Origin: Gammaproteobacteria bacterium
GTDB lineage: Bacteria > Pseudomonadota > Gammaproteobacteria > Pseudomonadales > Azotimanducaceae
Direction of reading: 5' to 3'
Length of the DNA stretch: 45,016 nt
Assembly (NCBI GenBank): GCA_028821405.1
Contig: JAPPGK010000026.1
Location: 1 to 45,016 of the forward strand
Positions 17,653-26,607 of this stretch are shown here, in pieces (the stretch's first letter is position 1; every line of letters starts with the position of its first letter). A program made the translations under genes and the position numbers. A model generated the notes under the pieces. The model saw only the letters and a program-made list of their open reading frames with translations. It did not search any database and was not told the DNA's origin.

Positions 17653-17677
17653 GGGCCGGGACGAGCCCGGCCCCTAC
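17653..17677 (-). repeat. GTAG-palindrome repeat, copy 4, supplies the UGSC stop codon
   Basis: On the minus strand: GTAG, then GGGCCGGG-CTCGT-CCCGGCCC, a perfect 8-bp stem. The TAG at 17674-17676 ends the UGSC selenoprotein gene. Placed between two convergent genes, it could also form a bidirectional terminator-like hairpin. Confidence 0.8.
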
Positions 17678-18192
17678 GCGGTCAACGCATCCACCACCGC
17701 GTCGACGCATTCGTCCGCCTTGGCGCGCATCTCGGCGTCCGTGGCGTCCTGAATCGGATGCGCGACGAACACCCGGCGCGCGTCGTCCATGCCAAGGGCT
17801 TCGGCTTGCGCCGTTGCCGCGTCGACGAACTCCGAGGAAGCGATGCTGACCGAGGGAACTCCCTGGATCTCGAACCATACCGTGTCATGCAAACTGCACG
17901 TGGTACAGGAGCCTCAGTCGGCTAGCGCCTCGATCACGAAGTCGTTGGCGTCGCGGATGTCCCGCCGCAGCGCGTCCGGGGCCGGCTTCGTGAACGTCGG
18001 CTTCGCGTAGCGGTTGACGGTGACATCCGGCAAGCGCTCGGCAAGCTGCGTTTCGAGCCGGTCGAGCAGGATGTTGCCGCGCGGCTTGGAGATGTCGAGC
18101 AGGGCGACGTTGCCCCGGATCGCACCCGTGCGCGGCGTCACGGTGCGCGCCACCGGCACCCGCTCGTCCGTTGGGTCTAGGATGGTGGTCAT
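17674..18192 (-). CDS. UGSC selenoprotein (in-frame TGA decoded as Sec93)
   Basis: One continuous frame of 172 residues if TGA at 17914-17916 is read as selenocysteine. ATG 18192, preceded by GGAGGAGG, starts MTTILDPTDERVPVA. The frame reaches EALAD, then TGA, then GSCTTCSLHDTVWFE, reproducing the name-giving Sec-Gly-Ser-Cys motif. The part after the TGA (GVPSVSIASSEF, RRVFVAHPIQDATDAEM) is well-formed protein in the same frame. UGSC proteins are a known selenoprotein family of marine and soil bacteria, some members having Cys at the Sec position; the function is presumed redox and remains unsettled. A SECIS-like hairpin begins 8 nt after the TGA. Ordinary gene callers would split it at 17914. 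It is the last gene of an operon with the thioredoxin-fused and RraA-like genes. Confidence 0.88.
17878..17905 (-). promoter_or_regulatory. Bacterial SECIS-like hairpin after the Sec codon
   Basis: On the minus strand the mRNA can fold as UACC-A-CGUGCA-GUU-UGCAUG-ACAC-GGUA: a 6-bp upper stem with one G-U pair, a GUU apical loop, and a 4-bp lower stem with an internal loop. The apical G lies 19 nt after the UGA, close to the spacing in E. coli fdhF, whose apical UGCAGGUCUGCA is also similar. The fold was made by eye. Confidence 0.65.
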
Positions 18193-18265: not shown

Positions 18266-18290
18266 GGGCCGCCACAAGGGCGGCCCCTAC
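18266..18290 (-). repeat. GTAG-palindrome repeat, copy 5, supplies a stop codon
   Basis: On the minus strand: GTAG, then GGGCCGCC-CTTGT-GGCGGCCC, identical over 25 bp to the copy at 26303-26327. TAG (18287-18289) ends the thioredoxin-fused gene. It lies within the 94-bp spacer before the UGSC gene, so the hairpin may affect operon read-through. Confidence 0.85.
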
Positions 18291-19846
18291 GGGTCGATTT
18301 TCTGGGAAACCGGCATCGAGCCGATCTCGCCGCCCGCCCAGCCGTGGAAGACCCCCGAGAACTTGCCGGCCTCGGCGCCTGCGACCACGATATGGATATT
18401 GCCCGTGGAGGCGAACTTCGGCGTCGGTCGGTTGCGGCGCTCTTCCGGCATCGCCGCCAGGCGTTCCGGCGACAATCCGCCGCCGGCGTCCTCGGTGGAT
18501 GCGAGATCTGCGAGCGGACGGGCTGTCGCTTTCTGGATCTGCTCGCGGATGTCGTGCTTGGTGAAGCCGTCGCGCTGCAGGGTGTCCACATGCTCCGGGG
18601 AGATCACCAGCAGCGCGTCACCCGCGTTGTGCGCCCGGACGTGGTGCGCGGCTTCCATGGACAAGCCGAAACTACCCGCTAGCTGCTTCGCCGTGCGCGA
18701 CGATTGATCGACGCACAAGGCCGGTCCGCTGGTCATCGCGAACACCGTGACCACGGAATCCTCCGGCGCGAAGCCCCGTTCGACGTGCAGCGGTTCCCAA
18801 GGACTGCGCTCCTCCCACTCGGGGAAGCACATCGTGAACTTCATGGGATTGCCCAAGGTGGAGCGCTCGGTTCCCCCCGGCTTGGCACCGCCGATGTTGC
18901 GTACCGCCAAGCGAACAGCTCGCCCGATGGCGGCGTTTGCCCGGCTGCCTTGCCCAAGCACGCCGAGGCCCATGTTCATCCCGATCCGTTCGCGGATGGG
19001 GCCGTTGACGATCATCACCGGCGAAGCGCCCATGGTCGTGGCGTTCACGCCGTGAATGTTGAAGGTCTTGTTGCAGATCGCCTCGATGGTGGCCATGACC
19101 ACCGGCAGGTACTCGGGTTTGCAGCCGGCCAGCACGGCGTTGATGGCGATCTTCTCGACCGTGGCAGGCGCGTAGTTCGGGGGAATCTCCGCGACCACCG
19201 CCTGGCTGTCCCGCCGTGTCCCGCCGAGCATCCTCAAGACCCGCTCGGGTGTCGGGGGCACCACCGGCAGCCCATCGGTGAAGCCTTGGTCGAACAGGAA
19301 CTCGTGGACGTCGTCGGCCGGTGCGATCTCGATCTTGCGGGCACGCAGCGGACTGTTCTCGGACGCGGCCCGCAGGCGCTCCGCGATCACGGGATCCTGG
19401 GTCAGCGACCCGCAGCCGGGCCGCCACTTGGGCAGCGATTCCCAGTCCACGTCGGCATCGGGAAGGTGATTTTCGAAGAAGGTGCGCCATTCGGCCCGGT
19501 CGAAGCCGACCAGGCGATCGGCCTCTTCGCCGTCGGCGTCGGCGAGGAGCACCAGCGGTACCGTCTCCACGTCGTAGGCGAACGACACCTTCAACGTCGA
19601 GTCGTCGAGCAGCGGCATGGTCAGACCGTGGCGTTCGATCAGCGTCCGGTTGCCCTCCGCGGTCTGTCCCGCCGCGAGTAGCGTCACGTCGCCGGCATCG
19701 TGGGCCGCCTGCAGAAGCGGCATCACCAGGTTGCAGGTGGGACAGTCCTCCTTGACGAAACAGACCACGGTAAGCGAACCGGTCGGAAACGCCCGGTCCT
19801 CGCCCGCCATGTCGGCGAGCGAGAACGGGGGCAGAACACTTGCCAT
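18287..19846 (-). CDS. Thioredoxin-like domain fused to a UGSC-neighbour protein domain
   Basis: 519 residues. The N-terminal about 130 residues look thioredoxin-like: VVCFVKEDCPTCN carries the CPTC redox motif (Cys35, Cys38), followed by a cis-Pro-like VETVPLVLL stretch. From about residue 180 comes a large domain beginning GFTDGLPVVPPTPERV, with conserved-looking runs GVNATTMGASPVMIVNGPIR and GNPMKFTMCFPEWEERSPW. I do not know its chemistry. A link to UGSC proteins is suggested by position. The start ATG 19846 lies 15 nt after the RraA stop with no Shine-Dalgarno site, suggesting coupling. The stop TAG is provided by a palindromic repeat. The thioredoxin part may reduce the selenoprotein encoded next (inference). 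Confidence 0.72.
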   Translation of the reverse strand: MASVLPPFSLADMAGEDRAFPTGSLTVVCFVKEDCPTCNLVMPLLQAAHDAGDVTLLAAGQTAEGNRTLIERHGLTMPLLDDSTLKVSFAYDVETVPLVLLADADGEEADRLVGFDRAEWRTFFENHLPDADVDWESLPKWRPGCGSLTQDPVIAERLRAASENSPLRARKIEIAPADDVHEFLFDQGFTDGLPVVPPTPERVLRMLGGTRRDSQAVVAEIPPNYAPATVEKIAINAVLAGCKPEYLPVVMATIEAICNKTFNIHGVNATTMGASPVMIVNGPIRERIGMNMGLGVLGQGSRANAAIGRAVRLAVRNIGGAKPGGTERSTLGNPMKFTMCFPEWEERSPWEPLHVERGFAPEDSVVTVFAMTSGPALCVDQSSRTAKQLAGSFGLSMEAAHHVRAHNAGDALLVISPEHVDTLQRDGFTKHDIREQIQKATARPLADLASTEDAGGGLSPERLAAMPEERRNRPTPKFASTGNIHIVVAGAEAGKFSGVFHGWAGGEIGSMPVSQKIDP

Positions 19847-19861
19847 GACGGGCGCGTTAAG

Positions 19862-20554
19862 TCAGTGGATCTCGGCGGACCTGCCCTGCGCCTCGCGCAG
19901 CTTCTCGATGTTGAAGCCGGGTTGCTTCGCGGCGTTGATGATGACGCCTTCACGCCGGGCGATGCCGGCGGCCGCATCCATCACCTTGTCGGCGACGTCG
20001 TGGGGAATCACGACCGCGCCGTGCTGGTCGGCGTGCACGAGGTCGCCGTCCATGACGGTCATGCCGCAGACGTTGATCTGCGCGCCGAAGGAAACCACGT
20101 GCACGAAGGCGTGGGACGGCCCCACCCGGTCCGCCAGCATCTGGAAGCCGTCTGCCACGTCGGGGAGGTCGCGGACGCTGCCGTCGGTGATGACGCCGAG
20201 ACATCCCAGCCCCTTGTGGATGTTGCTGTTCACCTCGCCCCAGAACGAGCCGTAGCCGCGCGAATCGCCGTCGAGATCCTGGATCACCGAGATCGCCGGT
20301 TTCGGCCCGCCGTTGTCGATGTAGTCGTAGTAGTCGCCAGGCGTATTCCGACGATCAGCCGGATGCCGCGCGCGAATCGTGGCGGTGCGTGCATAGCCGA
20401 CCATGACCCCGAGTTGGGGACGTGTGCAGACCAAGGGTTCGACGGTATAGCCGAAGCCGCGCCGGTGCGATGCCACGACCTCCAGCGCATTGCAGACGGT
20501 GGGCGTATCGATGGTGGCGAGTTGCTCTAGCAACTCGGCGGGGTGTTCGGACAT
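19862..20554 (-). CDS. RraA-family protein (aldolase/RNase E regulator-like fold)
   Basis: 230 residues of the RraA / 4-hydroxy-4-methyl-2-oxoglutarate aldolase superfamily. GVITDGSVRDLPDV (Asp124, Arg128, Asp129) is the metal and substrate signature, with GDLVHADQHGAVVIP downstream, both standard. In such catabolic settings these proteins are usually class II aldolases or decarboxylases of oxo-acids, not true RNase E inhibitors. ATG 20554 has AAGGA upstream at 7-8 nt. It is the first gene of the minus-strand operon leading to the thioredoxin-fused protein and the UGSC selenoprotein, and is divergent from the small membrane-protein gene at 20746. The substrate is unknown. Confidence 0.85.
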   Translation of the reverse strand: MSEHPAELLEQLATIDTPTVCNALEVVASHRRGFGYTVEPLVCTRPQLGVMVGYARTATIRARHPADRRNTPGDYYDYIDNGGPKPAISVIQDLDGDSRGYGSFWGEVNSNIHKGLGCLGVITDGSVRDLPDVADGFQMLADRVGPSHAFVHVVSFGAQINVCGMTVMDGDLVHADQHGAVVIPHDVADKVMDAAAGIARREGVIINAAKQPGFNIEKLREAQGRSAEIH

Positions 20555-26453: not shown

Positions 26454-26529
26454 GGGTGTTTAGCTCAGTTGGGAGAGCGACGGCCTTACAAGCCGTAGGT
26501 CGCAGGTTCGAGCCCTGCAACACCCACCA
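26454..26529 (+). tRNA. tRNA-Val (anticodon UAC)
   Basis: 76 nt with encoded CCA. The acceptor stem GGGTGTT pairs with AACACCC (26519-26525), followed by A-CCA. The anticodon stem ACGGC/GCCGT encloses loop CTTACAA with anticodon TAC at 26487-26489. The D arm (AGCTCAGTTGGGAGAGC) and T arm (GCAGGTTCGAGCCCTGC) are standard. Confidence 0.96.
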
Positions 26530-26530
26530 C

Positions 26531-26607
26531 GGAGCGGTAGTTCAGCTGGTTAGAATACCGGCCTGTCACGCCGGGGGTCGCGGGTTCGAGTCCCGTCCGC
26601 TCCGCCA
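26531..26607 (+). tRNA. tRNA-Asp (anticodon GUC)
   Basis: 77 nt with encoded CCA, one base after tRNA-Val and surely co-transcribed. The acceptor GGAGCGG pairs with CCGCTCC (26597-26603), discriminator G, CCA. The anticodon loop CTGTCAC gives GTC. The T arm CGCGGGTTCGAGTCCCGTCCG region is standard. Nothing resembling its 3' end recurs elsewhere in the window. Confidence 0.96.

What the first reader, a model, noticed from the sequence alone, without database searches (positions are those of the whole stretch)
17674..18192. UGSC selenoprotein gene read through an in-frame TGA
The minus-strand frame is continuous across TGA 17914-17916. The TGA falls exactly at the U of the U-G-S-C motif that names a known selenoprotein family, and a hairpin with fdhF-like apex and spacing follows. 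Family membership is established knowledge; the fold was done by hand. Standard annotation would give two false genes. It implies that this organism makes selenocysteine, although no sel genes are in the window.
Basis: partly seen in the sequence, partly recalled or inferred. Interest (0 to 1): 0.8.

Follow-up and report, generated by a model that had tools for sequence, protein, structure and literature searches.

The report
UGSC selenoprotein with unannotated partner
The bacterium most likely reads a stop codon as the rare amino acid selenocysteine to make a known but uncharacterised protein, and nearly all copies of this gene examined lie beside or are fused to a second protein that the family libraries searched do not name.

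Summary
Window 17674-18192 (-) is one 172-residue UGSC-family gene read through TGA 17914-17916. The product passes NCBIfam NF041046 and Pfam PF24696. The window's own genome has selA, selB, tRNA-Sec (anticodon TCA) and selD, and two more UGSC genes with TGA. The hairpin after TGA is supported by comparison: its stem pairs in 345 of 345 cells with 8 double changes, and the Ser codon carrying its loop is AGT in 71 of 71 cases against 86 of 1498 Ser codons in partner genes. This is a new member of a known family.

Three points go beyond the finding. (1) UGSC comes with an unannotated ~340-residue partner domain, here at 18287-19846 (-) behind a thioredoxin-like front end; 22 of 22 UGSC genes from two genome samples have it. 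(2) The predicted UGSC fold is flavodoxin-like, not thioredoxin-like as once supposed in print. (3) Its Sec region aligns in register with PrdB-like relatives of D-proline reductase (suggestive). I propose a two-part seleno-reductase; its substrate is unknown.

The parts
17674..18192 (-). UGSC-family selenoprotein gene, 172 aa plus TAG stop
17914..17916 (-). In-frame TGA read as selenocysteine (residue 93, U of UGSC)
   Evidence: Sec machinery
17886..17900 (-). SECIS-type hairpin: 5-bp stem, loop G-U at nt 20-21 after TGA
18287..19846 (-). Partner protein, 519 aa: thioredoxin-like N-terminus plus unannotated ~340-aa partner domain
18308..19339 (-). Partner domain, found beside or fused to UGSC in 22 of 22 sampled UGSC genes; no Pfam or NCBIfam match at E <= 0.001
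19544..19831 (-). Thioredoxin/AhpC-like region (residues 6-101; CPTC at residues 35-38); 24.9 bits, just under Pfam's cut-off of 26

Best explanation
The gene encodes a UGSC selenoprotein. SelB with tRNA-Sec(UCA) decodes the UGA because a SECIS hairpin lies directly 3' of it (components shown by sequence; decoding inferred). The product and the partner encoded just upstream work as one enzyme: separate neighbouring genes in some genomes, one fused chain in others (pairing shown by genomics; complex inferred). UGSC is predicted to be an alpha/beta domain with Sec immediately before a helix. I propose that the partner domain binds the substrate, that the Sec selenol (with the Cys of U-x-x-C) attacks or reduces it, and that the partner's C-x-T-C thioredoxin-like region reduces the Se-S bond afterwards, by analogy with PrdB/GrdB reductases. 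The chemistry is inference and the substrate is unknown. The confidence given is for recoding and pairing; for the proposed chemistry I would say about 0.4.
For: Recoding: family match across the TGA; full Sec machinery in the genome; two further UGSC paralogs with TGA (13); a stop codon at the site in 77 of 77 readable genome contigs sites; SECIS stem paired in 345 of 345 cells with 8 double-change cells against a shuffled mean of 2.0, 0 of 500 as high; Ser+7 codon AGT in 71 of 71 against 86 of 1498 Ser codons of partner genes; the Cys-form L141 uses TCG at that Ser (84); G496 and G628, whose UGSC is the Cys form, have no selB match over the cut-off and their best tRNA-Sec match is a tRNA-Ser by ARAGORN (82, 83, 85); in Blastococcus L112 the codon is TAG and the tRNA anticodon CTA (42, 43, 45; kind already known, PMC5330540). 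Pairing: partner beside or fused to UGSC in 17 of 17 class-sample genes and in the 5 further phylum-sample genes; 77 of 79 partner loci in genome contigs carry UGSC, the other 2 ending within about 250 nt of the partner at a contig end; the own C1 copy is a UGSC-partner fusion. PrdB-like kinship: hhalign 86.2%, E 4.9e-6 for one comparison, Sec aligned to Sec; reversed control 0.3%.
Against: Hairpin energy is no better than shuffles. One pair-count measure is weak: pairs with a change on both sides, 2 against a shuffled mean of 1.1, reached by 66 of 500 shuffles. The PrdB relation depends on the UGSC set used: 86.2% with 17 class-sample rows, 60.7% with all 91 rows, 16.5% with A4, against five PrdB-like sequences. 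No physical interaction was tested. G337 has a Cys form (on a 3664-base contig) although it has tRNA-Sec and a partial selB below the cut-off. G135 carries a TGA form on a 3108-base contig, but neither selB over the cut-off nor an ARAGORN tRNA-Sec was found in that genome.
Confidence: 0.9

Rival explanations
1. A pseudogene or sequencing error: a nonsense mutation split an ordinary UGSC-like protein.
For: A stop codon interrupts the frame; folding energy of the hairpin is ordinary.
Against: The same codon is a stop (76 TGA, 1 TAG) in 77 of 77 readable sites from genome-contig loci and TGA in the two paralogs of this genome; Sec genes are present.
Confidence: 0.01
2. TGA is reassigned genome-wide (for example to Trp), so no selenocysteine is involved.
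For: TGA is read as a sense codon here.
Against: tRNA-Sec with anticodon TCA and selA/selB/selD are present; Cys stands at this site in the three non-Sec homologues found; the partner gene of the own C43 copy ends in TGA. A genome-wide stop-codon census was not made.
Confidence: 0.01
3. UGSC is a stand-alone thioredoxin-like oxidoreductase, as the 2008 GOS paper supposed; the partner is only a frequent neighbour.
For: UxxC motif; [quoted passage not shown]
Against: AlphaFold2 model (pLDDT 92.7) with five strands alternating with helices; best Foldseek hits are azoreductase, FMN reductase, lumazine synthase and similar chains at moderate TM-scores, no thioredoxin among the 50 listed of 1837 matches; the partner accompanies 22 of 22 sampled UGSC genes, including natural fusions.
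Confidence: 0.08

Closest known systems
UGSC family (seleno)protein, NCBIfam NF041046 / Pfam PF24696; 'UGSC-containing protein' (PMC2398784, PMC13188914, passages)
   Same: Family score, UGSC motif, Sec codon, length
   Different: Nothing in the selenoprotein itself; the constant partner and a flavodoxin-like predicted fold were not in the passages I read
UGSC/Unknown_1 fusion (PMC2398784, passages)
   Same: UGSC fused to a conserved domain, as in the own C1 copy and in G332
   Different: Whether Unknown_1 is this partner could not be checked (supplements not readable here); in the window the two are separate genes
PrdB / GrdB selenoprotein subunits of D-proline and glycine reductases (Pfam PF07355, TIGR04483)
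   Same: U-x-x-C at the same alignment register; remote profile match; a UGSC profile also finds the PrdB-like L133 at E 1.4e-4 in a very small set
   Different: PF07355 is not among the 25 families shown for 75 UGSC members at E 10; no partner domain was detected in the stretches held around five PrdB-like genes

Membership tests
UGSC family (seleno)protein (NF041046, PF24696) | Score above curated cut-offs | tested here: met
   167.4 against 125 bits; 160.4 against 25 bits
UGSC family (seleno)protein (NF041046, PF24696) | U(or C)-G-S-C motif, here with codon TGA | tested here: met
Bacterial selenoprotein gene | selA, selB, selD and tRNA-Sec in the same genome | tested here: met
Bacterial selenoprotein gene | SECIS hairpin directly 3' of the Sec codon | tested here: met
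   Comparative. Energy alone: not exceptional
Bacterial selenoprotein gene | Sec in the purified protein | not testable with these tools
   Needs 75Se labelling or mass spectrometry
Thioredoxin fold | Thioredoxin-like fold of the UGSC protein | tested here: not met
   Predicted structure only
GRDB/PrdB (PF07355) | Match to the family profile | tested here: not met
   P0001 matches PF24696 only; PF07355 not among the 25 families shown (of 30) for 75 members
GRDB/PrdB (PF07355) | Remote homology with Sec in register | tested here: inconclusive
   hhalign 16.5%, 60.7% or 86.2% by UGSC set; controls 0.1-0.3%

The most novel reading that the evidence does not exclude
UGSC plus its partner is an undescribed two-component selenoenzyme class: a PrdB/GrdB-related Sec domain that works obligately with a substrate-binding domain of unassigned fold and, in many bacteria, a built-in thioredoxin-like module, performing reductive bond cleavage in catabolism.
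Probability: 0.4. Interest if true: 0.65.

Novelty: new member of a known kind. Interest (0 to 1): 0.42.

Why it matters
[quoted passage not shown] PMC2398784, passage), and a 2026 review counts it among prokaryotic selenoproteins whose functions remain largely uncharacterised (PMC13188914, passage). A constant, unannotated partner and a resemblance to PrdB/GrdB rather than to thioredoxin give a concrete handle on its reaction: co-purify the pair and test for reductase activity.

Tried and rejected
Folding energy as proof of the SECIS hairpin: not significant, so the comparative test was used. Rfam gathering scan of the window: two tRNAs only. Partner against Pfam and NCBIfam: no match at E <= 0.001 for the 84 members of A5; the commonest weak hit was SDA1_HEAT, 7 of 84, best E 0.043. 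Partner against PDB sequences: best E 0.42. Partner fold search: nothing at E <= 0.001; the best, class I fumarase at E 1.8e-3 with TM 0.23, then cyanuric-acid hydrolase, are too weak to name a fold. UGSC profile against PDB sequences: best E 0.37. PrdB-like loci searched for the partner (13.7 kb around one gene, 3.2-3.4 kb around four): none. Gene neighbours other than Sec genes are variable and name no pathway. I had first written a chance figure (about 3e-13, printed) for UGSC and partner hitting the same 6 of 369 genomes; I dropped it, because rows of the partner profile A3 come from 5 of those 6 genomes.

Rows dropped before counts. For the SECIS pair count I left out L027, L037 and L040 and the eight US-x-C genes (L028, L029, L033, L035, L036, L038, L039, L041), which do not share this stem register; by eye the eight US-x-C genes have another hairpin with a GGUC loop. 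Also left out were the second, contig-edge copy in L086, the three Cys forms, L092 (cut before the Sec codon) and L170 (found later). For A4 I left out L074, L092, L096, L112, L119 and the second copy in L086.

Full report
The observation. On the minus strand, 17674-18192 is one frame with a single TGA at 17916-17914. Read as selenocysteine it gives 172 residues that pass the curated cut-offs of NF041046 and PF24696, matching on both sides of the TGA. Chance is excluded by these scores and by conservation: in 77 of 77 readable UGSC sites from named genome contigs (loci L042-L120; L092 is cut before the site) the codon is a stop, 76 TGA and one TAG.

The organism. The window is contig C33 of a 4.77-Mb genome in 122 contigs, 97.56% complete. 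It holds tRNA-Sec at 71.6 bits with anticodon TCA, selB at 383 bits and selA at 517 bits on the same contig C60 as the tRNA, and selD at 252 bits. The best five named relatives of the partner gene (L042-L046) are Pseudomonadales and gammaproteobacterial MAGs, 72-78% identical (which may leave out records very near the window's own). The genome has three UGSC genes, each with one TGA. A PrdB-like gene with U-P-V-C (L134, contig C88) is a likely further selenoprotein.

The SECIS element. A 5-bp stem with a G-U in its loop follows the TGA. Single-sequence folding is no better than shuffles, so I used comparison. In A6 (84 sequences, 69 distinct; dropped rows are listed under Tried and rejected) all 345 cells pair. 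There are 8 double-change cells (shuffled mean 2.0, 0 of 500 as high) and the covariation score is 0.173 against 0.116 (0 of 500). The number of pairs with a double change, 2 against 1.1, is reached by 66 of 500 shuffles. Slid versions pair at most 67% of cells. Three of the five pairs never vary and say nothing. The Ser codon that forms the loop is AGT in 71 of 71 Ser cases among L042-L120, while the partner genes of those loci use AGT for 86 of 1498 Ser codons. In the six sites where the residue is Cys or Gly the codon is TGT or GGT, and G-U stays at nt 20-21 in 77 of 77. E. coli fdhF has G-U at the same distance. The Cys-form L141 uses TCG there. The sequences are related, so these figures are not independent trials.

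Sec form against Cys form. Two samples (class, 369 genomes; phylum, 398 genomes; they overlap, at least in G000 and its order) gave 22 distinct UGSC genes in 10 genomes, counting the two pieces of the broken L140 gene as one. Nineteen are Sec forms and three are Cys forms: L030, L140, L141. One more Sec-form gene, L170 in G332, turned up later from the partner side. Of the nine genomes other than the own, five with Sec forms (G091, G314, G332, G492, G661) have selB over the cut-off and an ARAGORN tRNA-Sec. G496 and G628 (Cys forms) have no selB over the cut-off, and their best tRNA-Sec matches (51.5 bits, above Rfam's 47, and 46.7 bits) are tRNA-Ser by ARAGORN. G337 (Cys form on a 3664-base contig, genome 75% complete) has tRNA-Sec and a partial selB below the cut-off. 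G135 (Sec form on a 3108-base contig, perhaps foreign) has neither. The last two do not fit the simple pattern. In Candidatus Blastococcus massiliensis (L112) the codon is TAG and the tRNA-Sec-like gene has anticodon CTA, which ARAGORN labels Pyl; UGSC genes of this kind are already reported (PMC5330540, passages).

The partner. Directly upstream lies a 519-aa gene (18287-19846). Its C-terminal ~340 residues have relatives beside or fused to UGSC in both own paralogs. The C1 paralog is a single frame, UGSC then partner. From the UGSC side, 17 of 17 class-sample genes and the 5 further phylum-sample genes have it. From the partner side, a profile search of the 369 class genomes hits the same 6 genomes as UGSC. 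That is not an independent detection, because rows of the profile A3 come from 5 of these 6 genomes; what it adds is that none of the other 363 genomes showed a partner without UGSC. All 13 partner places listed there have UGSC (at most 5 candidates per genome were scored). In genome contigs the partner scan kept 79 distinct loci, the best of at least 581: 77 have UGSC, in 74 of them within 300 nt of a partner domain and in three (L072, L075, L097) 1.8-3.9 kb away. The two without (L074, L119) end within about 250 nt of the partner at a contig end. No Pfam or NCBIfam family matches any of the 84 members of A5 at E <= 0.001, and no PDB sequence does. In 70 of 83 partner proteins of those loci, C-x-T-C stands within the first 110 residues (pattern only); in the window the AhpC/TSA match is 24.9 bits, just under Pfam's 26.

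Genomic setting. In the neighbour clustering, clusters whose representatives are selB and selA reach 17 and 14 of 79 loci, and an oxidoreductase-SelD-related fusion 5. Only one representative of each was tested, and many loci are cut by contig ends. Other neighbours vary; by reading their sequences (recall, not tested) some look like acyl-CoA dehydrogenases, thiolases and CoA-transferases, which would suit catabolism.

Fold and kinship. The AlphaFold2 model of UGSC (pLDDT 92.7, 75 sequences) has five strands alternating with helices, and Sec stands immediately before the helix after strand 3. Foldseek's best 50 (of 1837 at E <= 10; 23 at E <= 0.001) are largely azoreductases, FMN reductases, lumazine synthases and flavodiiron proteins, with some unrelated entries, at query TM about 0.3-0.54; no thioredoxin is among them. 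That disagrees with the supposition in PMC2398784 (passage) but rests on prediction. The partner model (pLDDT 89.1) has no PDB match at E <= 0.001. Profile-profile comparison of UGSC with five PrdB-like sequences aligns Sec with Sec: probability 16.5% with A4, 60.7% with 91 UGSC rows, 86.2% with the 17 class-sample rows. Reversed and unrelated controls give 0.1-0.3%, and 40 column permutations reach a score of at most 18.2 against 36.1 for the 91-row set. I take this as suggestive.

Mechanism. Shown by sequence: the UGA-Sec context, the decoding genes, and the pairing with the partner. Inferred: decoding itself; complex formation; Sec and the Cys of UxxC as redox or nucleophilic centre; the thioredoxin-like region as reductant; a substrate pocket in the partner. 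The substrate is unknown.

Literature. 'UGSC' with 'selenoprotein': 8 papers; I read passages in six. 'UGSC-containing protein': 7 papers. 'UGSC family': none. 'UGSC' with 'gene neighborhood': none. The UGSC/Unknown_1 fusion is in PMC2398784 (passages); its supplement could not be read. So the constancy of the partner was not in the text I saw, but I cannot say that it is unpublished.

Verdict. A real, correctly read selenoprotein gene, a new member of a known family, with a constant partner that the annotation libraries searched do not name.

Noticed in passing
L028, L033, L035-L041, L170 (genome G332): One genome carries at least ten UGSC-partner genes, all with TGA; seven (L028, L033, L035, L036, L037, L039, L170) begin with a signal-peptide-like stretch by eye, suggesting exported selenoproteins.
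   Followed up: partly
L134 1222-2001 (own genome, contig C88): PrdB-like gene with in-frame TGA in U-P-V-C, a likely further selenoprotein of this organism; 98 bits to TIGR04483, below its cut-off of 300.
   Followed up: partly
L112 6347-6349; L121: Blastococcus UGSC gene with TAG at the Sec position and a tRNA-Sec-like gene with anticodon CTA, which ARAGORN calls tRNA-Pyl.
   Followed up: yes
L071, L073, L076, L077: Two partner-domain genes near one UGSC gene, in Chloroflexi/Dehalococcoidia MAGs.
   Followed up: no
L140: A Cys-form UGSC that is frame-broken, in a genome (G628) with no selB over the cut-off and no tRNA-Sec found: perhaps decay after loss of the Sec trait.
   Followed up: partly
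window 19862-20554 (-): RraA-like/aldolase gene ending 15 nt before the partner start on the same strand; may belong to the same operon.
   Followed up: no
L054, L056, L059, L060, L064-L070, L095, L108, L110, L114, L118, L120: The UGSC-partner pair lies within a few kb of a selB-cluster gene in 17 of 79 loci, so in these genomes it may be a main client of the Sec system.
   Followed up: partly
window 26454-26604 (+): Two adjacent tRNA genes.
   Followed up: no
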